Positions 22,677 through 35,121 of a DNA stretch of 64,000 bases are shown in pieces. The stretch covers positions 186,001-250,000 of the forward strand of contig NZ_LGUI01000002.1 of NCBI RefSeq assembly GCF_002891295.1. The letters run 5' to 3'. Source of the DNA: Streptomyces eurocidicus. Its GTDB lineage: Bacteria > Actinomycetota > Actinomycetes > Streptomycetales > Streptomycetaceae. The notes under the pieces are model-generated. The model ran no database searches. It saw nothing but the letters and a program-made list of their open reading frames with translations, and was not told the DNA's origin. A program made the position numbers and the translations under genes. The stretch's first letter is position 1. Each line of letters starts with the position of its first letter.

Positions 22677-23417
22677 TCAGGAGCCGCCGAGGAAGTCGAC
22701 CAGCAGCATGTCCCGGACGCCGGTCGCGGCGCCGGACGCCGGCCGGACCGGGGAGACACCGTGCAGGACCCGGCGGTCGTCGAGGATGATCGTCTCCAGC
22801 GGCGCGGTGAGCACGGCCCGGTGCACGGGGCGCCGCTCCGGGTCGTAGAGACAGGACTCCGCGCCCCGCACGTCCTGGCGGCGGATCAGCACCTGGGCCA
22901 CGTAGCAGTGCCCGTCCCGGTGGACGCCCTCCGGCGCGGGATGGCCCTCGGCGTTGACCGTCGCGACGACGCGGATCTGGTGCACGCCGCAGGTGTCGAT
23001 GCCCGCGCGCGGGCCGGGCAGCCGGTCCAGGAGCGCGAGGACGACGCGGCGCAGCGGCTCGCCCGCCGCCACGGACGGGTGCAGCGGGGCGAACAGCCGC
23101 GCGACGCCGCCGTTCACCCGGTTCACCGACGCGTCCTGGAAGAAGGGGGCGTGGGGGAGTGGCGCCAGCCCCCGCGACCGGAGGCGGAACTTCCCGTACC
23201 GGCGGAAGCGGTAGGGCTTCTCCGTACCCAGGTGGGCGTCACCGGGCAGATCGTCCCAGGAGCCGAGGAACTCCGTCACCTCAGCCTCGGGGACCCCCGC
23301 CAGCGCGTCCGCCAGCGGGCCGGGGCCGAAGTGGACGAAGGGCGGCCGGGACACGGCACCGGGTATCGCCGGAAGCGCGTCGGGCAGCTCCCGCGCGCGC
23401 AGTGGACTTGAGGTCAT
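22677..23417 (-). CDS. 2OG-Fe(II) dioxygenase family protein (PF10014 type)
   Basis: A 246-residue protein like the bacterial free amino-acid hydroxylases of the isoleucine/leucine dioxygenase type. The metal triad is visible as 'GVHRDGHCYV' (HxD) and the distal His in 'RRVLHGVSPV', with the 2-oxoglutarate-binding Arg in 'GVRDMLLVDF'. Around the core are 'EKPYRFRRYGKFRL' and 'CGVHQIRVVATVNAEG', also typical. Reaction expected: hydroxylation of a free amino acid or similar small acid with O2 and 2-oxoglutarate; substrate unknown. ATG 23417 follows GAGGA with a 7-nt gap. It sits between the methionine importer and the polyyne-like cluster and is on the same strand as the FabH gene upstream, so it could be co-transcribed with it. 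Confidence 0.82.
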   Translation of the reverse strand: MTSSPLRARELPDALPAIPGAVSRPPFVHFGPGPLADALAGVPEAEVTEFLGSWDDLPGDAHLGTEKPYRFRRYGKFRLRSRGLAPLPHAPFFQDASVNRVNGGVARLFAPLHPSVAAGEPLRRVVLALLDRLPGPRAGIDTCGVHQIRVVATVNAEGHPAPEGVHRDGHCYVAQVLIRRQDVRGAESCLYDPERRPVHRAVLTAPLETIILDDRRVLHGVSPVRPASGAATGVRDMLLVDFLGGS

Positions 23418-23600
23418 CAGATGTCCTCGCCTTCGTACGGGCCGGGGGCGCCGGCCCGGTGCGGGCCCGCGCGGGCGGCGTCGGGTCGGGGGCGAGGAGG
23501 CCCCTCGTCCGACAGTAAGGCGAGAGCCGGGCGGACTGGCCTGAAAGTGCGCGGTGGACCTGAGGAACCGGCCGGCCGACCGCCTCAGGCGCCCCATCCG

Positions 23601-24593
23601 TCACGGAAGACGTACAACTTGCGCCCCCCAGGTGAGACCCGCGCCGAATCCCAGGAACAACGCCAGATCGCCACTGGTCACGGCCCCCGACTCGCGCAGC
23701 CGGGCGACGGCGAGCGGTACGGAGGCGGCCGAGGTGTTGCCCGTGTGCACCACGTCCCGGGCCACGACGACGTGTTCGGGCAGCTCCATGCGCTGCGCCA
23801 CGGTCTCGATCATCCGCAGATTGGCCTGGTGCGGTACGAAGGCGGCGAGATCGGAGGGTCTTGTTCCGGCCGCGTCGAGCGCGGCCAGGGCGACCTTGGG
23901 CATCTCCTCGATGGCCCAGCGGAACACCTCCGGCCCGGCCATGCGCATGGTCGGCCACACCGTCCCGGGCTCGTCCCGGTACGCGAGCCAGCTGGCCGAG
24001 TGGGCGATGAGCTCGCGGCGGCCGCCGTCGGAGCCCCAGACCACCGGCCCGATGCCGCACTCCTCGCGCGGTCCCACGACCATGGCGCCGGCGCCGTCGG
24101 CGAACAGGATGGCCGCCGAGGGGTCCTCCGGGTCGACGATGTCCGTCATCTTGTCCGAGCCGATCACCACGACATAGCGCGCCGCGCCGTCCCGGACCAT
24201 CGAGCCGGCCAGCGCCAGGCCGTAGCAGAAGCCCGCGCAGGCGGCGTTGAGGTCGAAGGCCGCGCCACGGGTGCCGAGCCGGTCGGCGATCTCCGTCGCG
24301 TCACCGGGGCTCTGCCGCAGCCCCGACATCGAGGCCAGCACGACCGCGCCGATCAGGCCGGGCTCCACACCGGCGTCGGCGACGGCCTTCCGCGCCGCCT
24401 CCACGGCCATGTCCACGACCGTCTCGTCCGCGGCGGCATAGCGGCGTTCCATGATTCCGGTGCGCCGCTGTATCCACTCCGCCGTACGGCCGGTGCGGGA
24501 AGCCACTTCCTCATTGGTGACGACGCGGTGCGGCCGGTAGGCACCTATACCCAGAATTCCCGCGTCCTGTGCGGTGGTTCGCTGTATCTGCAT
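23601..24593 (-). CDS. Beta-ketoacyl-ACP synthase III (FabH-like)
   Basis: A 330-residue KAS III. The catalytic triad is intact: Cys119 in 'NAACAGFC', His in 'PHQANLRM' and Asn in 'HTGNTSAAS'. The protein begins 'GILGIGAYRPHRVVTNEEV' as in FabH. It condenses an acyl-CoA starter with malonyl-ACP. The gene is divergent from the thioesterase-FAAL-desaturase operon across a 573-nt regulatory region. Options are supply of the fatty acid precursor, a pathway-specific condensing step, or a resistant duplicate of a fatty acid enzyme protecting against a product that alkylates thiols. The housekeeping fabH is normally in the fab operon, so this is an extra copy. Confidence 0.88.
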   Translation of the reverse strand: MQIQRTTAQDAGILGIGAYRPHRVVTNEEVASRTGRTAEWIQRRTGIMERRYAAADETVVDMAVEAARKAVADAGVEPGLIGAVVLASMSGLRQSPGDATEIADRLGTRGAAFDLNAACAGFCYGLALAGSMVRDGAARYVVVIGSDKMTDIVDPEDPSAAILFADGAGAMVVGPREECGIGPVVWGSDGGRRELIAHSASWLAYRDEPGTVWPTMRMAGPEVFRWAIEEMPKVALAALDAAGTRPSDLAAFVPHQANLRMIETVAQRMELPEHVVVARDVVHTGNTSAASVPLAVARLRESGAVTSGDLALFLGFGAGLTWGAQVVRLP

Positions 24594-24912
24594 GGCAATA
24601 CCAACCCTCGGTCCGTTCTGGATGCCGGTTGTCGCACGGCCGTCGAAGGGGCACCGGTCCTGGCGCGGTCGACGGAGGCGGGGCGCGGGCGCGATCAGTG
24701 ACAGCCGGTCCGCGCCGGCCGGCGGACGGGTCCGGGAAAGGCGCTCCGGCCTTGATCCCGAAGGTGTGCGGAAACCCGGTCCCGACGGGCGGGACACTCG
24801 GGCGCCGGACGGCTTCCGATCCGGGCGAGAACTCCGGTGGCGATCACCGTGCCGCGCATACAGGCCCCCCCAAGCCGGAAACGTGAACTCACCCGCGGGA
24901 ACTATCGCCGGG

Positions 24913-24935
24913 GTGGGTTGGAGTCCGCAACCCAC
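24913..24935. promoter_or_regulatory. Operator-like 23-bp palindrome (copy 1)
   Basis: Left half GTGGGTTGG and right half CAACCCAC are inverted and fill 23 bp in total. The same half-site grammar, GTG-R-GTTGG and CAAC-Y-CAC with identical overall length, recurs at 33678-33700 before the MFS exporter gene. A single dimeric repressor could bind both. Confidence 0.6.
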
Positions 24936-24951
24936 CGGCATCCGGATGCCG
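24936..24951. promoter_or_regulatory. Perfect 16-bp palindrome CGGCATCCGGATGCCG
   Basis: An uninterrupted palindrome abutting the right arm of the 23-bp palindrome. It is probably a second regulator site or part of a compound operator. Confidence 0.45.
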
Positions 24952-24990
24952 AGTGTTGAACGTCACGCCTCTCCGAGGATTCGAACAAGC

Positions 24991-25004
24991 GTGATGCGGG
25001 TCAC
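24991..25004 (+). promoter_or_regulatory. Crp-like binding site GTGATGCGGGTCAC
   Basis: Matches the GTG-N6-GNCAC pattern described for Streptomyces Crp and lies 12 nt upstream of a -35 element, a typical activator position. Crp control of secondary metabolism is known in Streptomyces; for this site it is inferred. Confidence 0.45.
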
Positions 25005-25016
25005 AAAAAATATTGC

Positions 25017-25046
25017 TTGCTTGGTATGGCGCGGCCCTTCTACGGT
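25017..25046 (+). promoter_or_regulatory. Candidate promoter of the thioesterase-FAAL operon
   Basis: -35 TTGCTT (25017-25022) and -10 TACGGT (25041-25046) are separated by 18 nt. The thioesterase GTG lies about 110 nt further on. Confidence 0.5.
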
Positions 25047-25166
25047 CACTCGTGTGATCCAACTCCTCGTAAAGACTGGCCTGTTGTCGACGATCGGGTT
25101 CCAGCACCGCGAGGGGTCCGCCCTTTTCGCTGACGGCGTTGTTCCGGTTGCCGGTTCGGAGGAGTC

Positions 25167-25964
25167 GTGACCTCTCTTGCAACACCGCTCTCACCTGCGG
25201 AACTACTGCGCCGACCGGTCTCCGGCGATATCGCCGCGGGAGCCCATCTGCAGGGCTTCGGAGGCTTGCACGGCGGCCTCACCCTCGCGCTGATGACCTC
25301 CGCGATGCAGGGATCGGTACCGGACATTCCGCTGGTGAGCACAACCGCCCGATTCCACCGGCCGATCGGCGGCGACTTCCGGGTGGAGACCTCGGTCGTT
25401 CGATCGGGTCGCACCATCTCGGCGGTCGGCGCACGCGCGACGACGGCCAAAGGAATTCATGTCGACGGCCAGGCGGTCTTCGGGTCGCTGAAGCCGGCGT
25501 CCTGGCGGACGTTTGCCCCGGTCGCACCGGTGGCGCCGCCTCCGGAAGACTGTGAAATCTTCACCATTCCACCCGAGTTCGTGGCGATTTCCACGTACAT
25601 GGAGATTCGCCCGGTCGGCCCCAGCCGTCCCTATGCGGGGGGTGCGGAACCCGAACTCATCGCATGGATAAGGCTGGTGGAGGACGAGGAGCCGCCGGAT
25701 GTGCTGCGCTTCGTCTTTCTGATGGATTCGCTGGCGCCTTCGTACGCGGCGGTGCTCTCGACCCTAGCCTTGGTGCCCACCGTGGAACTCACCGTACGGC
25801 CCGGCGGAAATCTCGCCCGGGCGGATTCGCCGTGGATGCTGCTGCGCGCGCGGACCCGGGCGGCCAGTGCCGACGGCTGGGTGGACGAGCAGATCGACGC
25901 CTGGGGGCCGGACGGCACCCACCTGGGTTCCGCCCAGCAGCTCCGCGTCGTGCGGACGGACTGA
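25167..25964 (+). CDS. TesB-like acyl thioesterase (double hotdog)
   Basis: A 265-residue protein of the TesB/acyl-CoA thioesterase II-like group with two hotdog repeats. The first repeat includes 'GGLHGGLTLALMTSAM', 'PIGGDFRVETSVVRSGRTISAV' and 'GQAVFGS'; the second includes 'VELTVRPGG' and 'SPWMLLRARTRAASADGWVDEQIDAW', the catalytic-domain pattern. GTG 25167 lies after GGAGGAG. It is the first gene of the proposed polyyne operon and most likely hydrolyses a CoA or ACP thioester, either providing free acid for the FAAL or releasing the product. Its codon use is slightly less GC-biased than its neighbours. Confidence 0.8.
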   Translation: MTSLATPLSPAELLRRPVSGDIAAGAHLQGFGGLHGGLTLALMTSAMQGSVPDIPLVSTTARFHRPIGGDFRVETSVVRSGRTISAVGARATTAKGIHVDGQAVFGSLKPASWRTFAPVAPVAPPPEDCEIFTIPPEFVAISTYMEIRPVGPSRPYAGGAEPELIAWIRLVEDEEPPDVLRFVFLMDSLAPSYAAVLSTLALVPTVELTVRPGGNLARADSPWMLLRARTRAASADGWVDEQIDAWGPDGTHLGSAQQLRVVRTD

Positions 25965-26074
25965 CCGGCTTTACCGCGCACGGCACGAAAAAAGAATTCA
26001 GGACCCGCCATTGGCGCAATGACGGGTCTCAGTCACGAGGCCGAAGTGAACGGGCCGAAGCAAACGGGGGCGCT

Positions 26075-27865
26075 GTGGACCGCTTAGCGGGGTGGGCTCG
26101 TACGTCATTGCCCGCATCATTGCCGGAGATCCTGGAACACCGGGCGGCCCAGCCGCCGAGGCTGGCCTTCCGCTTCCTCCCCGACGGGACCGGCGACGAG
26201 CTGGTCGACTGGACGTACCAGGACCTCGCCGAGCACGCCGGCCGTATCGCCGCGGATCTGCTGGGCCGGGAGCTCACGGGCCGCCGCGTCGTCCTGGCCC
26301 TCGACCCCGGGGTGCACTACGTCGCCGCGCTCTTCGGGATATTCCGGGCCGGGGCCACCGCGGTGCCCTCCTTCCCGCCGACCGGCAAGCGCGCCGTGGC
26401 GCGCTTCGCTTCGATCGTCGAGGACTGCGCACCCGATGTGATCATCGCCGACACCCGGCTGGAGAGCCGCGTCGGTCAATTCGAGGCCGAACTACCGGAA
26501 TCCGTGTCCCGCCCGCAGTGGATATTCGTCGACGACGCGTATTTCCGGGGCGCGGCCGCACCCGATCCGGAGCCCCCGAGGCTCGCCGGTCCGGCGCTGC
26601 TGCAGTACACCTCGGGCTCGACCGGGAACCCCAAGGGCATTGTGCTCACCCATGAAAACCTCGTCAGCAATTGCGTCACGCTTGAGGAGAACATGGGCTA
26701 CGAGCCGGACCGGGTCGGCTGCACCTGGCTCCCGCCGTACCACGACATGGGGCTCATGGGCACCCTGTTGCTCGCGGTGCACGGTGGCTGGCCCCTGGTG
26801 CTGCTGTCGCCGGCGCACTTCGTACAGCAGCCGTACCGCTGGCTCAAGGCGCTCACCGACCACAAGGTGACGATTTCGGTCGGCCCGAACTTCGCGTTCG
26901 ACCTCTGTACGTCGAGCGTCACCGACGAGGAGCTGGAGACGCTCGACCTCCGCCTGCTGCGGCAGGTCTTCTGCGGCTCGGAGCCCGTCTCCCGGGCCAC
27001 CCTGGACCGGTTCCAGGAGCGATTCGGCCCGCGCGGCTACACCGAGACGTCCCTCATCCCCTGCTATGGGCTGGCCGAGGCGACGCTCTACGTCTCGGGC
27101 AAGCGCTCGGGCACCGAGGTCCGCACCCGGCTCCTGGACAAGGAGGCCCTGGAGCGGGGTTCCGTCCGCGACGCCGATCCCCTCGGCGCGGCCGCGACGG
27201 CGCGGATCGTCAGCTGCGGCGCCGTCGCCGCCGGCCACGAGGTGCTGATCGTCGACCCGGAGTCCCGGCGTCCGGCCGGTGCCGGGCGGGTCGGCGAGGT
27301 CTGGGTCCGCGGCCCCAACGTCGCCGCGGGCTACCTCGGCCGGCCCGAGCTCACCGCCGAGACCTTCGCCGCCCGCCTCGCGGACGGCGCCCGGCCGTCT
27401 TCGGGAAGTGAACAAACGTATCTGCGCACGGGAGACCTGGGCTTCCTGCTCGATGACGAGCTCTACATCACCGGGCGCCTCAAGGACCTCGTGGTCATCG
27501 CCGGCCGCAATCTCTATCCGCAGGACATCGAGCACTCCGTGCGCGAGTCCCACGACAGACTGCGCGGCTCCGCGGTCTTCTCCCGCCCCGGTGAGGCCGG
27601 CGAGGAACTGGTGGTCGTCGCGGAGTACCGCGGCACCGCACGTCAGCTGGCCGCCGAGGGCGGCGCGGTCCTCGACGCGGTGATCGCGGCGGTGACCGCC
27701 GACCACGGGGTCCGGCCGGCCGACGTGCACTTCGGGCCGGTCGGCGCGATCCCCATGACCACCAGCGGCAAGGTCCGCCGGGACGCGACACGGAAGGCAT
27801 ACGCCCAGGGGACGCTCAAGAAGCTGGCCCTGGCCACCGACGACAAGCCGCTGTCCGCGCGGTGA
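26075..27865 (+). CDS. Fatty acyl-AMP ligase (FAAL) of polyyne-like cluster
   Basis: A 596-residue adenylate-forming enzyme. Motifs are 'YTSGSTGNPKGIVLTHENL' (phosphate loop), 'CYGLAEATLYVSG', and 'YLRTGDLGFLLDDELYITGR' with 'DLVVIAGRNLYPQDIE'. The 'YHDMGLMGTLLLAVHGGWPLVL' stretch and length are typical of FAALs rather than acyl-CoA ligases. It should activate a free fatty acid as acyl-AMP and transfer it to the ACP encoded 2 kb downstream, like JamA and CayA. GTG 26075 has a GGGGG ribosome site. Codon 4 is TTA, which requires the bldA tRNA in streptomycetes. The next gene begins 12 nt downstream. Confidence 0.93.
   Translation: MDRLAGWARTSLPASLPEILEHRAAQPPRLAFRFLPDGTGDELVDWTYQDLAEHAGRIAADLLGRELTGRRVVLALDPGVHYVAALFGIFRAGATAVPSFPPTGKRAVARFASIVEDCAPDVIIADTRLESRVGQFEAELPESVSRPQWIFVDDAYFRGAAAPDPEPPRLAGPALLQYTSGSTGNPKGIVLTHENLVSNCVTLEENMGYEPDRVGCTWLPPYHDMGLMGTLLLAVHGGWPLVLLSPAHFVQQPYRWLKALTDHKVTISVGPNFAFDLCTSSVTDEELETLDLRLLRQVFCGSEPVSRATLDRFQERFGPRGYTETSLIPCYGLAEATLYVSGKRSGTEVRTRLLDKEALERGSVRDADPLGAAATARIVSCGAVAAGHEVLIVDPESRRPAGAGRVGEVWVRGPNVAAGYLGRPELTAETFAARLADGARPSSGSEQTYLRTGDLGFLLDDELYITGRLKDLVVIAGRNLYPQDIEHSVRESHDRLRGSAVFSRPGEAGEELVVVAEYRGTARQLAAEGGAVLDAVIAAVTADHGVRPADVHFGPVGAIPMTTSGKVRRDATRKAYAQGTLKKLALATDDKPLSAR
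26084..26086 (+). promoter_or_regulatory. TTA codon at FAAL codon 4 (bldA-type control point)
   Basis: The reading GTG GAC CGC TTA places the rare leucine codon at the very start of the FAAL. In Streptomyces TTA codons make translation depend on the developmentally regulated bldA tRNA. I noticed no other in-frame TTA in this cluster. Confidence 0.85.
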
Positions 27866-27877
27866 CGGGAGTCCACC

Positions 27878-28843
27878 ATGACCGTCTCTTCCGAGAGTTC
27901 ACCCGGGACCACCCCCGGGAGCTCCCCCCGGCCGGCCGGTGCCGCGGGCCCCGCCGGTGCCCCGGCCGGTGACACCGACGCCTCGGCGCGAAGACTCGCC
28001 TACGTCACCGTCGGCGTGCCCACCCTCGGCTTCGCCGGAGCCGTGGTCTTCGCCTTCCACTACGGCATCAGCGCCGTCGACATCGGGCTGCTCGCCGGCA
28101 TGTACCTGGTGACCTCGCTGGGGGTGGAGGGCGGCTTCCACCGCTTCTTCTCCCACCTGTCCTTCACGGCCAGGCCCGGCGTCACCGCCTTCTGGGGGAT
28201 CGCCGGGAGCATGGCGGCGCAGGGCCCGATCGTCTTCTGGGTGGCCACCCACCGCCAGCACCACGCCTTCACCGACCGCGACGGCGACCCCCACTCGCCC
28301 CGCCCGCTCGAGGACGGCCGGCGCTTCCCCCGGGTACGCGGCTTCTGGCACGGCCACGTGGGCTGGCTGTTCACGGTCCGCCGGCAGAACTGGAGCAAGT
28401 ACGTCCCGGACCTGATGCGCAACCGGCTGGTGATGAAGATCAACCAGTACTACTTCGGCTGGGTCCTGGCCGGTCTGGCGCTGCCCGCGCTGCTGGGCTG
28501 GGCGCTCACCGGCGGCAGCGCCCGCGGCGCGGCCGGCGGCCTCCTCTGGGGCGGTCTGGCCCGGATCTTCCTGCTCGACCATGTGACGTGGAGCGTCAAC
28601 TCGATCGGCCACACGCTGGGCAACCGCCCGCACCGGACCCGTGACGACAGCCGCAACGTGGCCGCCCTCGCACCGTTCTCGGTCGGCGGCTCCTGGCACA
28701 ACAACCACCACGCCAAGCCGGCCCTGGCGCACAACCGGCACACCTTCTGGCAGATCGACATCGCCGGGGGCGTCATCCGGCTGCTGGACGTGCTCGGCCT
28801 GGTCTCCCATGTCCGCTACCCCAAACGCGCACGGTCAGAGTAG
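27878..28843 (+). CDS. Acyl desaturase 1 (delta-9-type membrane desaturase)
   Basis: A 321-residue membrane di-iron desaturase. The histidine boxes are HRFFSH (residues 88-93), HRQHH (125-129) and HNNHH (274-278), with four hydrophobic membrane spans around residues 45-115 and 190-245. Gly/Pro/Ala-rich residues 1-35 form a disordered N-terminus. Together with two further desaturases and an ACP it fits the CayB/CayC-type enzymes that introduce double and then triple bonds into an ACP-bound chain. The ATG lies 12 nt after the FAAL stop with GGGAG upstream. Confidence 0.9.
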   Translation: MTVSSESSPGTTPGSSPRPAGAAGPAGAPAGDTDASARRLAYVTVGVPTLGFAGAVVFAFHYGISAVDIGLLAGMYLVTSLGVEGGFHRFFSHLSFTARPGVTAFWGIAGSMAAQGPIVFWVATHRQHHAFTDRDGDPHSPRPLEDGRRFPRVRGFWHGHVGWLFTVRRQNWSKYVPDLMRNRLVMKINQYYFGWVLAGLALPALLGWALTGGSARGAAGGLLWGGLARIFLLDHVTWSVNSIGHTLGNRPHRTRDDSRNVAALAPFSVGGSWHNNHHAKPALAHNRHTFWQIDIAGGVIRLLDVLGLVSHVRYPKRARSE

Positions 28844-28859
28844 AAAAGGAGTGGCCCTC

Positions 28860-29807
28860 GTGTCCTCGGCAACAGCTGATCCGCTGGCGGCGGCAATCGT
28901 CAAGCTCGACCCTGCCAGCCGCCGCATCAAGAGATTCTCCGCGCTGACCACCATGACGCTGCCGCTGATCGGCACCCTCGCGGCGGTCTGGTTCCTGTGG
29001 ACCGGCAACTTCACCACCACGGACCTGGTCCTGTTCGTCGTGATGTATTTCGTCCACATGGGCGGCATCACCATCGGCTTCCACCGCTACCTCTCGCACA
29101 AGGCGTTCAAGACCTCGCGTGTGTTCGAGGGCATCATGATGATCACCGGATCCATGGGTGCCCAGGGCCCGCTGATGTTCTGGGTCACGACCCACCGCCG
29201 GCATCACCGCTTCAGCGACCGCGACGGCGACCCGCACTCCCCGAACCTGCACGGCCGGAGCCTCCGGGCCCGCCTGCGGGGGCTGTGGTACGCGCACATG
29301 CCCTGGATGCTGAGCGACGAGACCTCGAAGTGGACCGTCTTCGCCCCCGACGTCCTGCGCGACCGCCGGCTGATGTGGTACCACCGCACCTACCCCGCCT
29401 GGGTGCTCACCGGCCTGCTGATCCCCACCGTGATCGGCTTCGCCGTCGGCCATACCCCGATGTCCGCCCTCACCGCGCTGGTCTTCGGCGGATTCGCCCG
29501 TATCTTCGTGGCCAACCAGGCCGCCTGGTGCGTCGGTTCGGTCTGCCACGCCATCGGCAGCCGCCCCTTCAACAACGACGACCGCAGCGCCAACAACTGG
29601 CCCGTGGCCGCCTTCACCTTCGGCGAGGGCCTGCAGAACAACCACCACGCCTTCCCGGGCTCGTACCGCCACGGCGTCACCTGGTGGGAGCCGGACCTGA
29701 GCGGCTGGCTGCTCTTCGGCCTCGGCAAGGCGGGCGTCGTATGGGAGCTGCGCGAACCCGACCAGGCGACCATCGCCAGGAAACGGGCGATGAAAAAGGC
29801 CGCCTGA
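28860..29807 (+). CDS. Acyl desaturase 2 with QNNHH third box
   Basis: A 315-residue membrane desaturase. Box 1 HRYLSH (75-80) and box 2 HRRHH (112-116) are standard, but box 3 reads 'GLQNNHHAF' with Gln259 where most homologues, including desaturase 1, have His. Membrane spans lie near residues 32-75 and 185-230. GTG 28860 follows AAAGGAG at 9-nt spacing, and the intergenic gap from desaturase 1 is 16 nt. A second desaturase acting on the same substrate at the adjacent bond, or an acetylenase step, is likely. The Gln substitution may alter the iron site or its reactivity. Confidence 0.9.
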   Translation: MSSATADPLAAAIVKLDPASRRIKRFSALTTMTLPLIGTLAAVWFLWTGNFTTTDLVLFVVMYFVHMGGITIGFHRYLSHKAFKTSRVFEGIMMITGSMGAQGPLMFWVTTHRRHHRFSDRDGDPHSPNLHGRSLRARLRGLWYAHMPWMLSDETSKWTVFAPDVLRDRRLMWYHRTYPAWVLTGLLIPTVIGFAVGHTPMSALTALVFGGFARIFVANQAAWCVGSVCHAIGSRPFNNDDRSANNWPVAAFTFGEGLQNNHHAFPGSYRHGVTWWEPDLSGWLLFGLGKAGVVWELREPDQATIARKRAMKKAA

Positions 29808-29872
29808 GCGGCCCCGCTCCCCTCCACCCCACCCAGTTCCCGCACCACCTCCCGGCAGGAGCCACACCACCC

Positions 29873-30169
29873 ATGTTCGGACGCAAGAAGGAAACGCAGC
29901 TGACCGGCCCGCTCACGGAGGACTCCCTCCGGCAGTGGCTGGTCGACCACCTGGCACAGCGGATCGAGGTGTCGCCCGCCGAGATCGACACCACCAAGTC
30001 CTTCGAGGCGTACGGGCTCGACTCCCGCGTCGCCGTCCAGGTCTCGGGCTCCCTGGAGAAGGTCGTCGAGCGCAGGCTCTCGCCCGGCCTGCTCTACGAG
30101 CACCAGACCATCGACGACCTGAGCCGCTACCTCGCGCAAGAGCTCAGACTGTCCGGCCGGACCGGCTGA
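29873..30169 (+). CDS. Acyl carrier protein of polyyne-like cluster
   Basis: A 98-residue ACP. The phosphopantetheine attachment Ser51 is in 'EAYGLDSRVAVQVSGSLEKV'. The N-terminal 10 residues (MFGRKKETQL) are a basic extension, and the rest has the four-helix carrier pattern. It should carry the fatty acyl chain loaded by the FAAL while the desaturases act, as JamC does. AGGAG is 11 nt upstream of the ATG. It lies between desaturase 2 and desaturase 3, matching the order FAAL-Des-Des-ACP-Des seen in described polyyne clusters. Confidence 0.93.
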   Translation: MFGRKKETQLTGPLTEDSLRQWLVDHLAQRIEVSPAEIDTTKSFEAYGLDSRVAVQVSGSLEKVVERRLSPGLLYEHQTIDDLSRYLAQELRLSGRTG

Positions 30170-30182
30170 AGGGATCGCCACG

Positions 30183-31283
30183 ATGGCCGCTTACAACTTT
30201 CCGTCGGCACCCGACGAGAACTTCAAGGAATTCCTCCGGAAGTCGGAGAAGATCGAGGGGGAACGCCTTCAGGCGGCCATCCCCCGGGACTACTTCGAGC
30301 CCCGGGTGGCCCGCGGCATCCTCGGCTTCGCCGTCAGCTGGGCGCTCTACATCGGGGCGACCGTCGGCGTCGCCTACGCACCGCACTGGCTGCTGTGGAT
30401 CCCGCTGTGGATCGTCGCCGGCCTCGGCGGCTGGGGACTGCACTGCATCGCCCACGACTGCGGGCACGGCTCCTTCTCCCGGTCGCGCAAGTTCAACTTC
30501 GCCGTCGGCCATGTGTCGCTGCTGCCCCTGATCTACCCCTTCCACGCCTGGCGGCACGTCCACAACCTGCACCACAGCCACACCAACAACCTGGAGCTGG
30601 ACACCGACTGGCGTCCCGTCCCGGCGGCGCTCTACGACCGGATGCCCTTCCACGAGAAGGTCATCTACCACGGGACGCGCACCTGGGCGTTCTGGGGCGG
30701 CACCATCAACTACTGGCGGGAGTCCGGCTTCCGGCCGAGCTATTTCCCCAAGCGCGAGGCGCGCCGCGACGTCCGCCGGTCGATGCTCTTCGTGCTGGCC
30801 GTGTGCGCGCTGTACTTCACGCCGCTGATCTGGTTCACCGGCTTCACCGGCTTCCTGATCTACTTCGTCGCGCCCTGGCTCGCCACCCACGCGTGGTTCA
30901 GCGCGACGACGCTGATGCACCACAGCTCCAGCGACGTGCCGTACCTGACCAACGAGCACTGGACGCGCAACGCGAGCCGGCTGCTGGTGACGACCGACTA
31001 CGTCTACCCCAAGTGGCTGCTGTTCCTCACCCACAACATCTCCATCCACACCGCGCACCATGTGGCCCCGGTCGTGCCCTACTACAACCTCCGCAAGGCC
31101 CAGGCGGCCCTGAAGGCGGCGTACCCGGGCATGGTCCGCGAGGAGAAGGTCAGGATCGGCCAGCTCGCCCGGATCGTCCGGCGGCTGCACTTCTACGACA
31201 CCGAGTCGGGCTACTACACCGACTTCTCCCGTACCCGCATCGCACCGGCGGAGGCCGAGCCGGTGCCCGTGAAGACCTCGTGA
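30183..31283 (+). CDS. Fatty acid desaturase 3 (FADS type)
   Basis: A 366-residue membrane desaturase of the delta-12/omega-3-like type, different from the first two. The boxes are HDCGHGS (from residue 91), HNLHHSH (127-133) and HTAHH (289-293). Hydrophobic segments flank them ('ILGFAVSWALYIGATVGVAY' region and 'SMLFVLAVCALYFTPLIWF' region). This subclass contains plant and fungal acetylenases as well as desaturases, so it is a good candidate for triple-bond formation. It begins 13 nt after the ACP gene, and its TGA overlaps the start of the hydrolase gene by one base (TGATG). Confidence 0.92.
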   Translation: MAAYNFPSAPDENFKEFLRKSEKIEGERLQAAIPRDYFEPRVARGILGFAVSWALYIGATVGVAYAPHWLLWIPLWIVAGLGGWGLHCIAHDCGHGSFSRSRKFNFAVGHVSLLPLIYPFHAWRHVHNLHHSHTNNLELDTDWRPVPAALYDRMPFHEKVIYHGTRTWAFWGGTINYWRESGFRPSYFPKREARRDVRRSMLFVLAVCALYFTPLIWFTGFTGFLIYFVAPWLATHAWFSATTLMHHSSSDVPYLTNEHWTRNASRLLVTTDYVYPKWLLFLTHNISIHTAHHVAPVVPYYNLRKAQAALKAAYPGMVREEKVRIGQLARIVRRLHFYDTESGYYTDFSRTRIAPAEAEPVPVKTS

Positions 31284-32164
31284 TGACACCACTCTCCCTC
31301 CGACGGTTCGCCCACGCGGCGGTCGGCGCCCTCGCACCGGGCATCGGCGGCCGCTGGGCGACCGACGTGTTCTCCCGCACCCGCAAGCTGGGTGTCCGCC
31401 CCGACAACGTCCTGCCGCTCGGCGCCCGCCGGTTCGCCATCGAGGGCAACCCCGATGTGCGCGGCGGCTATCTGTGGGGCGAGGACGAGGGCCCGGACGG
31501 CGCGCCCGCGCCGACCGCGCTGCTCGTGCACGGCTGGGGCGCGGACAGCTCCAGCATGTACTCCCTCATCGCCCCGCTGCGCGAACTCGGCTACCGCGTG
31601 GCCGCGTTCGACGCCCCGGCCCACGGGGTGTCCGAGGGCAAGCGGGCGACGATGACGCAGTACACGGCGGCCACCCGGGCGGCGCTGGACTCGCTCGGCG
31701 GGGCGCGGGTGATCGTCGCGCACTCGCTGGGCTCGATCGCCGCCGTGGCCGCCCTGGCCCTGCGACCGGACCCGCGCGTCGACTGCCTCGCCCTCGTCGC
31801 GCCCACCTGCACCCTGAACGCCGTCCTGGACACCTGGGCGGAGCACGAGCTGCGGCTCGCCCGCCCGGTCCTCGACCGCATCTACCGAGAACTGCACCGC
31901 CGCAACGGGGTGCCCGTCAGCCACTGGGACGTCGTCGGCCTCGGCCGCGGGCTCCCGTGCCCGGTGCTGGCGATCCACGACCCCGACGACCCGGTCGTGC
32001 CGTTCCACGAGGCCGAGGTCATCGCGGCCGGCCTGCCGGACGTCCGGCTCGAAAGGGCCACCGGACGGGGCCACATGGGGATCCTCATGTCGCCCGAAGT
32101 GAAGAGCGCCGTCTCCGCGTTCGTCGCCGAACACGGATCCAGAACTGGAGAGACCATCGCGTGA
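31283..32164 (+). CDS. Alpha/beta hydrolase, probable acyl-ACP thioesterase or product hydrolase
   Basis: A 293-residue alpha/beta hydrolase. The nucleophile is Ser148 in 'VIVAHSLGSIAAV', the oxyanion region is 'LLVHGWGADSSSMY', the acid is in 'AIHDPDDPVVPF', and the catalytic His is in 'GRGHMGILM'. The N-terminal ~45 residues lack hydrolase features. By position it corresponds to the thioesterase that releases the polyyne from the carrier. It is translationally coupled to desaturase 3 (TGATG) and to the rubredoxin (GTGA). Confidence 0.87.
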   Translation: MTPLSLRRFAHAAVGALAPGIGGRWATDVFSRTRKLGVRPDNVLPLGARRFAIEGNPDVRGGYLWGEDEGPDGAPAPTALLVHGWGADSSSMYSLIAPLRELGYRVAAFDAPAHGVSEGKRATMTQYTAATRAALDSLGGARVIVAHSLGSIAAVAALALRPDPRVDCLALVAPTCTLNAVLDTWAEHELRLARPVLDRIYRELHRRNGVPVSHWDVVGLGRGLPCPVLAIHDPDDPVVPFHEAEVIAAGLPDVRLERATGRGHMGILMSPEVKSAVSAFVAEHGSRTGETIA

Positions 32165-32343
32165 GCGAGGACATGGGCAAGAGGGCATGGATGTGCCTGG
32201 TGTGCGGATGGGTCTACTACGAGGCCCTCGGACTCCCCGAGGAGGGCATCGCCCCGGGCACCCCCTGGGAGCAGATCCCCGACACCTGGGAGTGCCCGGA
32301 CTGCGGCACCACCAAGGCCGACTTCGTGATGGCACCGCTGTAG
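32161..32343 (+). CDS. Rubredoxin
   Basis: A 60-residue rubredoxin with an Fe(Cys)4 site: C12, C15 ('MCLVCGWVYYE') and C45, C48 ('WECPDCGTTKADF'). GTG 32161 overlaps the hydrolase stop by 4 nt, with GGAGAG about 10 nt upstream. Rubredoxins pass electrons to membrane di-iron oxygenases (AlkB-type) and desaturases. Its tight linkage suggests it serves the three desaturases and perhaps the P450, so the cluster brings its own electron carrier. No reductase gene is present here. Confidence 0.97.
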   Translation: MSEDMGKRAWMCLVCGWVYYEALGLPEEGIAPGTPWEQIPDTWECPDCGTTKADFVMAPL

Positions 32344-32401
32344 CCCCGGAGATCCGCACCGCCCGCCGGCACCCGCCGGGAACGTTCGAGGAGGAGAGCA
32401 G

Positions 32402-33628
32402 ATGAGCACACCGGTGACGGACCCCGGCGCCGCGATGACGGCGCTGATGACCCCGGAGGGCAAGCGCGACCCGTACCCCCTCTACGAGGCGCTCCGCGCG
32501 TACGGTCCGCTGCTGCGGCTCGGTCCGGACCAGCTGGTCGTCACCGGCCACGCCGAGTGCTTCCGCGCGCTGCGCGAGCCCGGGCTGCTGTCCACCGACG
32601 GGGCCGTGCAGGACAGGATGATGCCGGGCTGGCGCGAGCACTCCTCCTGGGTCTGGCTGGCCCGGAACATGCTGTTCAGCAACTCCCCGGACCATGAGCG
32701 CTACCGGCGGTTCTTCAGCGGCGCCTTCACCCCGCGGCGGATCGCCGGGATGCGGCCCGTGGCCGAGGGCCTGATCGACGGACTGGTCGAGCGGCTGGCC
32801 GGGCTCGGCGCGGACGGCGCCCCGGTGGACTTCATGGCGGAGTTCGCCTTCCGGGTGCCGATGGCCGTGATGGGTGCGCTGCTGGGCATCCCGGAGGAGG
32901 ACCAGGCGGCGTTCCGGGGCCCCGTCGGGGACATCACCACCGCCCTGGAGCCGATCCGCGACCTCGCCCAGCTCGACCGGGGCGACGGCGGCATGGACCG
33001 GATGGCCGCCTACTTCACCGAACTGGTCGCCGCCCGCCGGGCCGCACCGCGCGACGACCTGGTCAGCGAGCTGACCCGGGCCCGGGACGAGAGCGGCGAG
33101 CTCAGCGAGGAAGAGCTGATCGCCAACTTTATGCTGCTCCTGGTCGCCGGGACCGAGGCCCCCATGGACCTCATCGGCAACGCGCTGCGGCTGGCCCTCG
33201 ACCACCCCGAGCACGCCGACGGGCTCCGCGAGAACCCCGGGCTGGCCCCCGGTTACATCGAGGAGACCCTGCGCTTCGACCCCGCCGCCCAGGCGCTCAA
33301 CAGGATGGCCGCGACCGACATGGAGTTCTGCGGCGTACCGCTCACGGCGGGGACGAAGGTCACCCTCCTCATCGCGGCCGGCAACCGCGACCCGCGCCGG
33401 TTCCCCGACCCGCTGCGGTTCGACCCGTACCGCACGGGCAACCACGCGCTGACGTTCAGCGGCGGCGCGCACTTCTGCCTCGGCGCGGCGCTGGCCCGGA
33501 TGCAGGCGGAGACCGCGCTGCCGAGGCTGCTGCGCCGGCTCCCGGGGATCGGGCCGGCGGGGGAGCCCGGCTTCCGCGACCAGCTGGTGCAGCGGGGCTT
33601 CGACCGGCTGCCGGTGAAGTGTGGCTGA
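32402..33628 (+). CDS. Cytochrome P450
   Basis: A 408-residue bacterial P450. The haem-binding loop is 'FSGGAHFCLGAALAR' with Cys359, and the ExxR pair is in 'YIEETLRFDP'. In the I-helix the usual AGxET/D-T reads 'VAGTEAPMD', so Ala253 replaces the conserved oxygen-activating Thr, with Glu252 retained. Such a change is known in EryF-like P450s that use substrate hydroxyls, and can mean unusual chemistry. In caryoynencin biosynthesis a P450 at the equivalent place makes the allylic alcohol; a hydroxylating role is inferred here. It is the last gene before the MFS exporter. Confidence 0.92.
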   Translation: MSTPVTDPGAAMTALMTPEGKRDPYPLYEALRAYGPLLRLGPDQLVVTGHAECFRALREPGLLSTDGAVQDRMMPGWREHSSWVWLARNMLFSNSPDHERYRRFFSGAFTPRRIAGMRPVAEGLIDGLVERLAGLGADGAPVDFMAEFAFRVPMAVMGALLGIPEEDQAAFRGPVGDITTALEPIRDLAQLDRGDGGMDRMAAYFTELVAARRAAPRDDLVSELTRARDESGELSEEELIANFMLLLVAGTEAPMDLIGNALRLALDHPEHADGLRENPGLAPGYIEETLRFDPAAQALNRMAATDMEFCGVPLTAGTKVTLLIAAGNRDPRRFPDPLRFDPYRTGNHALTFSGGAHFCLGAALARMQAETALPRLLRRLPGIGPAGEPGFRDQLVQRGFDRLPVKCG

Positions 33629-33677
33629 CGCCTCTTCATGAAGCCGGGGGCCGTCCGCGAGGGCGCGGTATGCTCGC

Positions 33678-33700
33678 GTGAGTTGGAAAAACCAACTCAC
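33678..33700. promoter_or_regulatory. Operator-like 23-bp palindrome (copy 2)
   Basis: GTGAGTTGG (33678-33686) and CCAACTCAC (33692-33700) are perfect 9-bp inverted arms around AAAAA. The right arm is 14 nt before the MFS start codon. It shares half-sites and length with the palindrome at 24913-24935. Confidence 0.75.
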
Positions 33701-33714
33701 TAATGAGGAGAGCG

Positions 33715-35121
33715 ATGACTCAGACCGCCGCCGGTGAGGCGGGCAGCGTCACCAAGCCCCGGTTCGGCCCGGTGTTCGCCGTGGTGGTGGCCGGCGTGGC
33801 GATGTCCAACCTCGACATGTTCATCGTCAACGTCGCCCTGCCCGACATCGGCGCACGGTTCTCCGGGTCGTCGCTGGCCTCGCTGTCGTGGATCCTCAAC
33901 GCCTACGCCGTGATCTTCGCCGCGCTGCTCGTCCCGGCCGGCAGCCTCGCCGACCGGACCAGCCCGCGGCAGGCGTACCTGCTGGGCACGGCCGTCTTCA
34001 CCCTCGCCTCCGCCGCCTGCGCGGTGGCGCCGGGGGTATGGGTCCTGGTCGCCGCCCGGGTGGTCCAGGCCGTCGGGGCGGCGATGCTGATCCCGTCCTC
34101 CCTGGGGCTCCTGCTCGCCGCCGCCCCACCCGAGAAGCGGGTCGCCTCGGTGCGCGCCTGGACCGCCATCAGCGGACTGGCCGCGGCGCTCGGCCCCGTC
34201 ATCGGCGGCCTGCTCACCCAGCTCGACTGGCGCTGGGTCTTCCTGATCAACCTGCCCATCGGCGTCTTCGCCCTCGTCGTCGGCGCCCGGGTGCTGCCGC
34301 GCACCCCGTCCCGCCCGACCGCCGACCGGCTGGACCTCGCCGGCGCCGTGCTGCTCACCCTCGGCATCGCCGTCGTCGCCCTCGGCCTGGTCAAGAGCGG
34401 CGACTGGGGCTGGGCCTCCGGCGGGGTCCTCGGCTCGCTGGCGGCCGGCGCCGTCCTGCTCGGCTGCTTCGTCGTCAGCTCCGCCCGCCACCCGTCCCCG
34501 ATCCTGCCGCTGGACCTGCTGAGGATCCGGCCCGTCGGCCCGGCGACCTTCGCCAACCTCCTGTTCGCGGTGGCCTTCGGGGCGATGCTGCTCTCCGCGG
34601 TGCTCTGGTGCCAGCAGGTCTGGCACTGGTCACCGCTGCGCACCGGCCTCGCCATCGCGCCCGGCCCGGTGATGGTCCCCGCCTTCGCCATGGGCGTCGG
34701 CCCGCTCATCCGCAGGATCGGCTCGGGCGCGGTCTCCGCGATCGGCTCCGTGCTCTTCTGCGTGGGCATCGGCTGGTGGATACTCCGCCTGGACACCGCG
34801 CACGACTACGTCGCCGGCTTCCTCCCCGGCATGCTCCTCACCGGCGTCGGGGTGGGCCTGGTCGTACCGACCCTCGTCGGCGCCGCCGTGACCGCCCTCC
34901 CGCCGCAGAGCTTCTCCACCGGCTCGGCCGTGGTCACCATGGCCCGCCAGGTCGGCTCCGTCCTCGGGGTGGCCCTGCTGGTCGCCTTCCTCGGCACCCC
35001 CGGCGCCGGCGACGCCGTCACGGCCTTCGACCACGGCTGGGAGTTCACCCTCGCCGCGTCCGGGCTCTCGGCGCCGGCCTGTCTCTTCATACCCCGGGCC
35101 GCGAAGAAGGCCGCCGCCTGA
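33715..35121 (+). CDS. MFS drug transporter (DHA2-type, 14 spans)
   Basis: A 468-residue major-facilitator exporter. Fourteen hydrophobic segments are visible. Motif A appears as 'GSLADRTSPRQAYLLG', motif C as 'GPVIGGLLTQLDWRWVFLINLPIG', and the first helix contains 'NLDMFIVNVALP' as in EmrB/QacA relatives. It is the probable exporter or self-resistance pump of the polyyne-like cluster. ATG 33715 follows GAGGAG at 6-nt spacing; ATG 33703 is possible. Its own operator-like palindrome lies directly upstream, and a strong terminator follows. Confidence 0.9.
   Translation: MTQTAAGEAGSVTKPRFGPVFAVVVAGVAMSNLDMFIVNVALPDIGARFSGSSLASLSWILNAYAVIFAALLVPAGSLADRTSPRQAYLLGTAVFTLASAACAVAPGVWVLVAARVVQAVGAAMLIPSSLGLLLAAAPPEKRVASVRAWTAISGLAAALGPVIGGLLTQLDWRWVFLINLPIGVFALVVGARVLPRTPSRPTADRLDLAGAVLLTLGIAVVALGLVKSGDWGWASGGVLGSLAAGAVLLGCFVVSSARHPSPILPLDLLRIRPVGPATFANLLFAVAFGAMLLSAVLWCQQVWHWSPLRTGLAIAPGPVMVPAFAMGVGPLIRRIGSGAVSAIGSVLFCVGIGWWILRLDTAHDYVAGFLPGMLLTGVGVGLVVPTLVGAAVTALPPQSFSTGSAVVTMARQVGSVLGVALLVAFLGTPGAGDAVTAFDHGWEFTLAASGLSAPACLFIPRAAKKAAA

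What the first reader, a model, noticed from the sequence alone, without database searches (positions are those of the whole stretch)
23601..35121. Complete polyyne/terminal-alkyne-type biosynthetic cluster in an actinomycete
Gene order FAAL, desaturase, desaturase, ACP, desaturase, hydrolase, rubredoxin, P450 matches the caryoynencin (cay) type of Burkholderia polyyne cluster and extends JamABC. Here it is preceded by a thioesterase and a divergent FabH and followed by an MFS exporter. Established: FAAL + membrane desaturases + ACP make ACP-bound alkynes. Seen: all motifs intact. Inference: a new actinomycete conjugated polyyne or enyne acid. Polyynes are unstable and often missed.
Basis: partly seen in the sequence, partly recalled or inferred. 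Interest (0 to 1): 0.93.

Follow-up and report, generated by a model that had tools for sequence, protein, structure and literature searches.

The report
Streptomyces polyyne cluster with spare FabH
A Streptomyces genome carries the complete, intact gene set that other bacteria use to make polyynes (reactive chains of carbon triple bonds), so it likely makes an uncharacterised one; such actinomycete clusters were mapped before, and the less expected part is an extra fatty-acid enzyme beside it that may feed the pathway or protect the producer.

Summary
Window 25.2-35.1 kb holds, in order and intact, a thioesterase, FAAL, two desaturases, ACP, a third desaturase, alpha/beta hydrolase, rubredoxin, P450 and MFS exporter, with a divergent FabH (KAS III). 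FAAL to rubredoxin is the published seven-gene bacterial polyyne cassette in the published order. One scan found 47 relatives; 13 of 392 sampled Streptomyces genomes carry the third desaturase, all beside its partners. The host is close to S. albireticuli.

The polyyne call is well supported; two parts are not. It is not the caryoynencin subtype (actinobacterial side of the tree; P450 nearer to unrelated P450s of its own genome than to that of a Burkholderia gladioli-type cluster). And actinobacterial polyyne clusters were described in 2021. No product is known.

Apparently unreported is the accessory FabH: present in 9 of 9 named genomes of this subtype plus the window, divergent from the polyyne operon across a partly conserved promoter region, and never found with the cluster thiolases that 9 of 36 actinobacterial locus sets carry. 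It may supply starter units, or be a spare condensing enzyme for self-protection. New member of a known kind.

The parts
22677..23597 (-). 2OG-Fe dioxygenase (PF10014), ORF 3 bases downstream of FabH; membership of the cluster uncertain
   Evidence: Pfam E 5e-52; ORF clustering groups it in 8 loci, window included, but only 6 of 36 locus sets reach the threshold; pN/pS 0.49-0.61
23601..24593 (-). KAS III (FabH-like) condensing enzyme, divergent; extra to the FAS-operon FabH
   Evidence: 53% identical to the own FAS-operon copy and in a separate clade; close orthologues only in the group that bears this cluster
24913..24935 (.). inverted repeat GTGGGTTG-7 bases-CAACCCAC in the FabH/thioesterase divergent region (24594-25166); candidate operator, untested
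   Evidence: alignment of 9 loci: right arm CAACCCAC in 9 of 9, left arm GGGTTG in 7 of 9; exact pattern once in the own genome; with mismatches allowed it is no rarer than chance
25167..25964 (+). acyl-CoA thioesterase (4HBT_3 / 4HBT_3C)
   Evidence: Pfam E 2e-17; homologue in 24 of 36 actinobacterial locus sets, window included
26075..27865 (+). fatty acyl-AMP ligase (FAAL, JamA/CayA-like)
   Evidence: start codon inferred
27878..28843 (+). membrane desaturase 1 (by order the counterpart of PgnE/CayB)
   Evidence: PF00487; His boxes
28860..29807 (+). membrane desaturase 2 (by order the counterpart of PgnF/CayC); third box QNNHH
29873..30169 (+). acyl carrier protein (JamC-like)
   Evidence: PF00550 E 1e-12; GLDS motif
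30183..31283 (+). membrane desaturase 3 (by order CcnN/PgnH/CayE-like; the desaturase used for the published polyyne tree)
31283..32164 (+). alpha/beta hydrolase, core thioesterase (CayF-like), overlaps des3 by one base
   Evidence: PF00561 E 8e-18; AHSLG
32173..32343 (+). rubredoxin
   Evidence: PF00301 E 4e-19
32402..33628 (+). cytochrome P450, accessory, actinobacterial-cluster type
   Evidence: 55-63% in 13 hydrolase-type actinobacterial locus sets outside the own group
33715..35121 (+). MFS exporter
   Evidence: PF07690 E 1e-38; homologue in 25 of 36 actinobacterial locus sets, window included

Best explanation
This conserved Streptomyces gene cluster carries the complete seven-gene bacterial polyyne cassette and is predicted to make a fatty-acid-derived terminal polyyne of unknown structure. 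Shown by sequence: the genes, their order, intact motifs, conservation in relatives and purifying selection. Inferred from the characterised cay, pgn and mas pathways: the FAAL would activate a free C16 or C18 fatty acid (probably released by the adjacent 4HBT thioesterase) and load it on the ACP; the three membrane di-iron desaturases would act in turn on the ACP-bound chain to give conjugated triple bonds ending in a terminal alkyne, with rubredoxin as electron carrier; the alpha/beta hydrolase would release the acid; the P450 would hydroxylate it; the MFS protein would export it. The divergent FabH is more loosely assigned: it is probably regulated with the cluster, and either supplies starter units or serves as a spare thiolase-fold condensing enzyme that keeps fatty-acid synthesis going in the producer.
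For: Domains and gene order. In 47 loci of one scan, ACP is seen before des3 in 46, des2 in 45, the hydrolase after des3 in 41 and rubredoxin in 35; the rest are cut contigs, the P450-type clusters and a few divergent ones. 13 of 392 Streptomyces genomes have des3, all 13 beside des2 and ACP. Des3 tree: 32 labelled actinobacterial and 15 proteobacterial rows each on one side of a branch, support 86/88. pN/pS 0.05-0.40 for thioesterase to MFS. Function of the same gene set elsewhere: deletions of the desaturases and of cayF abolish polyynes (PMC8406139 section 9); the mas core made an ene-triyne in E. coli, with one gene replaced by its Burkholderia homologue, while loss of the rubredoxin only lowered yield (PMC9098870 section 7). 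Distinct from the four other desaturase loci of the genome: best 39%.
Against: No metabolite data. Chain length, number of triple bonds and tailoring cannot be read from sequence. No JamABC outgroup was fetched, so placement inside the wider alkyne tree rests on gene content and the published description. The same system gives a tetrayne, a triyne or a diynyl allene in different producers. No regulator was recognised among the genes examined from 19.7 to 37.2 kb, and no sigma-70-like promoter was found in 22.5-35.4 kb (0.4 expected by chance), so expression is unknown.
Confidence: 0.88

Rival explanations
1. The cassette makes a simple terminal alkyne or polyunsaturated acyl group (JamABC-like) for another pathway, not a conjugated polyyne.
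For: FAAL, desaturase and ACP are also the alkyne minimal set (passages).
Against: All four extra polyyne-specific genes are present, contiguous and conserved. No PKS or NRPS gene was recognised between 22.7 and 35.1 kb; the rest of the window was not annotated in full.
Confidence: 0.07
2. Role of FabH, reading 1: a biosynthetic enzyme that, with the 4HBT thioesterase, supplies a dedicated fatty-acid precursor for the FAAL.
For: Its nearest relatives outside the group sit in other biosynthetic loci: S. klenkii C6 and G332 near NRPS-like ORFs, recognised by eye; a plasmid locus with an annotated adenylation-domain gene about 10 kb away; and 10 of the 14 loci L082-L095 beside another FAAL-like gene.
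Against: Of the 15 other actinobacterial locus sets with the 4HBT thioesterase, 14 have no KAS III in the DNA held and one (G009) has a different one. No other fatty-acid-synthase gene was recognised in the cluster.
Confidence: 0.45
3. Role of FabH, reading 2: a self-protection copy of a target enzyme, standing where related clusters carry a thiolase.
For: Polyynes alkylate the active-site Cys of the thiolase MasL, a proposed self-resistance gene (PMC9098870); FabH has a Thiolase_N match and Cys119 intact. Cluster thiolases in 9 of 36 sets, KAS III in 10 of 36, both in 0. Precedent: condensing-enzyme copies, fabH among them, in thiotetronate clusters (PMC5518548, passages) and ptmP3 (PMC6332302, passages).
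Against: 17 of 36 sets carry neither in the DNA held, so a protective copy is not obligatory. The KAS III sets are one lineage plus G009, so the exclusion (hypergeometric 0.033) is not independent evidence. The group's genomes lack the FadA-like thiolase altogether, but so do three other polyyne genomes without this FabH. The FabH kin in other biosynthetic loci favour reading 1.
Confidence: 0.35
4. The cluster is a caryoynencin-type cluster and makes caryoynencin itself.
For: Same gene order including a P450 after rubredoxin, as in L059.
Against: L059, whose des3 is 90% identical to B. gladioli, is distant on the tree, and its P450 is only 30.5% identical to the window's, below the 41% seen with unrelated own-genome P450s.
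Confidence: 0.03

Closest known systems
Actinobacteria clade of polyyne BGCs (Mullins et al. 2021, PMC8406139)
   Same: Seven-gene cassette; Streptomyces-dominated; deep branching; no product linked to a cluster as of 2021.
   Different: The sections and passages read do not mention the divergent FabH, the 4HBT thioesterase or the shared promoter region of this group; the supplements were not read.
Caryoynencin (cay), Trinickia caryophylli / Burkholderia gladioli
   Same: Core cassette and a P450 after rubredoxin.
   Different: Different clade; P450 not closely related; FabH and 4HBT thioesterase not found in the B. gladioli-type locus L059 (16 kb).
Massilin/collimonin (mas/col) and cepacin (ccn) clusters
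   Same: Core cassette. MasL-like thiolases also occur in some related actinobacterial clusters.
   Different: The window has no matching thiolase, and no Rieske-type oxygenase appeared among the window genes put through Pfam; a P450 instead.
JamABC alkyne cassette
   Same: FAAL, membrane desaturase, ACP.
   Different: Window has two more desaturases, hydrolase and rubredoxin.
Thiotetronate and platensimycin clusters with resident condensing enzymes
   Same: A spare fatty-acid condensing enzyme beside an antibiotic cluster.
   Different: There the target is known; here the role of FabH is untested.

Membership tests
Seven-gene bacterial polyyne cassette (Mullins 2021; Commun Biol 2022) | FAAL | tested here: met
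Seven-gene bacterial polyyne cassette (Mullins 2021; Commun Biol 2022) | Three membrane desaturases, two before and one after the ACP | tested here: met
Seven-gene bacterial polyyne cassette (Mullins 2021; Commun Biol 2022) | Stand-alone ACP with phosphopantetheine Ser | tested here: met
Seven-gene bacterial polyyne cassette (Mullins 2021; Commun Biol 2022) | Hydrolase/thioesterase and rubredoxin after the third desaturase | tested here: met
Seven-gene bacterial polyyne cassette (Mullins 2021; Commun Biol 2022) | Third desaturase groups with desaturases of polyyne loci | tested here: met
   56-97% identity to the 47 loci, actinobacterial side of the tree; no JamB outgroup included
Seven-gene bacterial polyyne cassette (Mullins 2021; Commun Biol 2022) | FAAL/JamB inside the monophyletic polyyne clade of the wider alkyne tree | not tested
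   no JamABC outgroup sequences were fetched
Seven-gene bacterial polyyne cassette (Mullins 2021; Commun Biol 2022) | Product is a conjugated polyyne | not testable with these tools
   needs chemistry
Caryoynencin (cay) subtype | Cay-type P450 | tested here: not met
   30.5% to the P450 in B. gladioli-type L059 versus 41% to own-genome P450s
Caryoynencin (cay) subtype | Clade of the third desaturase | tested here: not met
MasL-type self-protection | Acetyl-CoA acetyltransferase gene in the cluster | tested here: not met
   no match in the window; FadA-like cluster thiolase at most 55% elsewhere in the genome; the MasL-like match in the genome (66%) lies on another contig and has a counterpart in all 13 genomes searched
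Self-protection by a resistant condensing enzyme | Cluster copy resists the product better than the housekeeping copy | not testable with these tools
   needs the product and enzyme assays

The most novel reading that the evidence does not exclude
In the S. albireticuli/roseoverticillatus group the polyyne cluster has exchanged the thiolase shield of its relatives for a FabH: the product kills bacteria by alkylating the active-site cysteine of FabH, and the divergent, co-regulated FabH is the producer's resistant spare. This would name a bacterial target for polyynes, which has been open.
Probability: 0.2. Interest if true: 0.72.

Novelty: new member of a known kind. Interest (0 to 1): 0.42.

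Why it matters
As of 2021 no actinobacterial polyyne had been linked to its genes (PMC8406139), and the bacterial target of Pseudomonas polyynes was still called open in 2025 (PMC12016544, passage). This cluster is intact and conserved in the window and nine named genomes of the group, several of them culture-collection strains, so product, target and role of the FabH can be tested directly.

Tried and rejected
Considered and rejected. (1) FabH as the housekeeping gene: rejected. The FAS-operon copy lies elsewhere (L138, between FabD-like and ACP/FabF-like ORFs, recognised by eye), is 53% identical and in a separate clade. (2) FabH as a mere neighbour: disfavoured. It keeps its place in at least two chromosomal settings (met genes in L023, L039, L051 and the window; other genes in L020 and its G241 copy), part of the intergenic region is conserved, and the 389 sampled Streptomyces genomes other than G000, G060 and G241 reach at most 63%; only the 5 best first-look candidates per genome were scored. 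(3) An empty site in G051, the only other of 392 genomes with a near metQ: its flanks match only the met operon, so uninformative. No group genome without the polyyne cluster was found or looked for further, so co-occurrence inside the group has no negative case. (4) The inverted repeat as a statistically rare site or a regulon: not shown; 2 matches against 1.29 expected in the window with 3 mismatches, both the same site, and two-mismatch matches in the genome no more frequent than the control pattern. (5) FabH and thiolase exclusion as proof: rejected, it rests on about two lineages. (6) FabH with a polyyne desaturase in a metagenome outside the group: P0005 (des3, 78%) and P0151 (FabH, 67%) are both listed on JGI contigs of 61,140 bases; same contig is inferred from equal length only, the contig was not read. 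(7) A notebook entry says 8 of 9 loci keep both arms of the repeat; the alignment shows 7 of 9.

Literature: searches listed no paper, judged by title, abstract start and the passages read, that links an actinobacterial polyyne cluster to a product or a polyyne to FabH (in one search none of the 10 listed papers holds the word polyyne). The library is open-access only; most subscription papers are missing. Supplements were not available.
Full report
Observation. The window comes from a 7.93-Mb, 18-contig Streptomyces genome (the genus by the kinship of named relatives). The closest named locus is S. albireticuli NRRL B1670 (L051): 91-99% identical for FAAL to MFS, 93% for FabH, 89% for the 4HBT thioesterase, 84% for the dioxygenase. 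Pfam, NCBIfam and PDB searches identify, from 25.2 to 35.1 kb on the plus strand, a 4HBT acyl-CoA thioesterase, FAAL, desaturase, desaturase, ACP, desaturase, alpha/beta hydrolase, rubredoxin, P450 and MFS protein; on the minus strand a KAS III (FabH) and a 2OG-Fe dioxygenase. Gaps from FAAL to rubredoxin are -1 to 65 bases, as in one transcript. Residue motifs are intact here and in relatives.

Relatives. One scan of the named genome collection with an alignment of the third desaturase gave 47 loci. ACP precedes des3 in 46 of 47 (L058 is cut at the contig end), des2 is seen in 45, the hydrolase in 41, rubredoxin in 35. The six without a hydrolase (L044, L045, L053, L056, L060, L064) have a P450 directly after des3, apparently the subclade that Mullins 2021 reported in ten genomes. 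In an even sample of 392 Streptomyces genomes 13 have des3 at E below 1e-60, the own one included; all 13 have des2 and ACP beside it, 11 followed by hydrolase and rubredoxin and 2 by the P450. In the des3 tree the 32 labelled actinobacterial and 15 proteobacterial rows each need one change, support 86/88; four rows, the window among them, carry no label and lie on the actinobacterial side. The window is in a 10-row clade (97/98) with L019-L024, L039, L051 and L062, called 'the group' here. Codon comparison with four relatives gives pN/pS 0.05-0.40 for thioesterase to MFS; the outside gene metQ gives 0.18-0.40. The genes are maintained like ordinary genes.

What it is. Two papers define the same block as the polyyne core: Mullins 2021 (PMC8406139; sections 5 and 9 and passages read) and the massilin paper (PMC9098870; sections 7 and 8 and passages read), which compared 56 clusters. 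In those producers deletion of the desaturases and of the hydrolase abolishes polyynes, loss of rubredoxin lowers them, and the mas core makes an ene-triyne in E. coli. By homology the window cluster is predicted to make a polyyne; the structure cannot be told. The P450 is not of the cay kind: 30.5% to that of L059, whose des3 is 90% identical to B. gladioli, against 41% to several own-genome P450s, while 13 hydrolase-type actinobacterial locus sets outside the group carry it at 55-63%.

The FabH. Three facts stand out. (a) The FabH of the window has orthologues of at least 76% in 9 of 27 polyyne-bearing named genomes, exactly the nine of the group; the other 18 reach at most 55% (in the genome of L024 it is on another contig than des3). 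In 392 Streptomyces genomes it exceeds 76% only in the window's genome, G060 and G241, which also carry the closest des3. (b) It is not the FAS-operon FabH (53%, separate clade), and the polyyne-linked sequences of the group form one supported clade (100/98, 9 rows) whose sisters lie in loci with NRPS-like genes. (c) It is divergent from the polyyne operon across 573 bases; in the nine loci aligned, the half next to the thioesterase is well conserved and holds an inverted repeat (right arm 9 of 9, left arm 7 of 9), though its rarity is not established. Its pN/pS is 0.15-0.29. G009, another Streptomyces, has a different KAS III (56%, placed nearer the FAS clade) after the MFS, SDR and FAD-oxidase genes of its polyyne cluster.

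Thiolases. Of 36 actinobacterial locus sets, 9 carry a FadA-like thiolase, 5 of these also a MasL-like one, 10 carry a KAS III of at least 50%, none carries both, and 17 carry neither; some sets are short or cut, and flanks vary. Genome-wide, the FadA-like kind (E 1e-115) is found in 16 of 28 genomes searched, in 0 of the nine of the group, and is also missing in three others. The MasL-like cluster copies, in 4 of 13 genomes searched, are extra to a copy of 65-68% present in all 13. MasL is a covalent polyyne target and a proposed self-resistance gene. KAS III shows kinship with thiolases (a Thiolase_N match at E 1e-6) and the same kind of active cysteine, so a swap of the spare target enzyme is possible, with thiotetronate and platensimycin clusters as precedents (passages). 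Against it: 17 sets with neither, one or two lineages behind the pattern, and FabH kin beside FAAL-like genes (10 of 14 loci L082-L095) or in NRPS-like loci, which favour a biosynthetic role. I rate supply 0.45 and protection 0.35; the mended counts (10 of 14, and 15 thioesterase-bearing sets outside the group) did not move these odds.

Novelty. The kind is known: clade mapped in 2021, detection rule in antiSMASH 8 (one passage). No product of an actinobacterial cluster was found in the listings; Sch 31828 from Microbispora is the one published actinobacterial polyyne that Mullins 2021 names, without a genome. The accessory FabH with its shared promoter region appears undescribed in what I could read (and the papers above). 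That these hosts are the former Streptoverticillium is recalled and from no call.

Noticed in passing
L028 and L029 (S. griseofuscus DSM 40191): A polyyne cluster with identical des3 lies near both chromosome ends in opposite orientation, probably in terminal inverted repeats.
   Followed up: no
L152 (S. goshikiensis plasmid NZ_CP115937.1): Seven Streptomyces plasmid records of 510-630 kb carry a polyyne des3; in the one read (linear), the cluster lies beside a DAHP synthase, aminodeoxychorismate synthase and AMP-binding genes, which might mean an aryl-conjugated product.
   Followed up: partly
L055, L057, L065: Mycobacterial and other actinobacterial clusters show no rubredoxin match and have a second FAAL-like gene after the hydrolase.
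   Followed up: no
window 28860-29807: Desaturase 2 has Gln in place of the first His of the third box (QNNHH) in 49 of 49 aligned sequences that reach it, while desaturase 1 has HNNHH in 48 of 50.
   Followed up: partly
window 22677-23597: The 2OG-Fe dioxygenase ORF (PF10014) behind FabH has a higher pN/pS than the cluster genes (0.49-0.61).
   Followed up: partly
L122:7617-8618 (G009): A second, apparently separately recruited KAS III near another Streptomyces polyyne cluster.
   Followed up: partly
L021: The record is titled Streptosporangium nondiastaticum, yet its cluster is 88% identical in des3 to the window and its FabH is named from Streptomyces nondiastaticus in another source; the title looks taxonomically off.
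   Followed up: no
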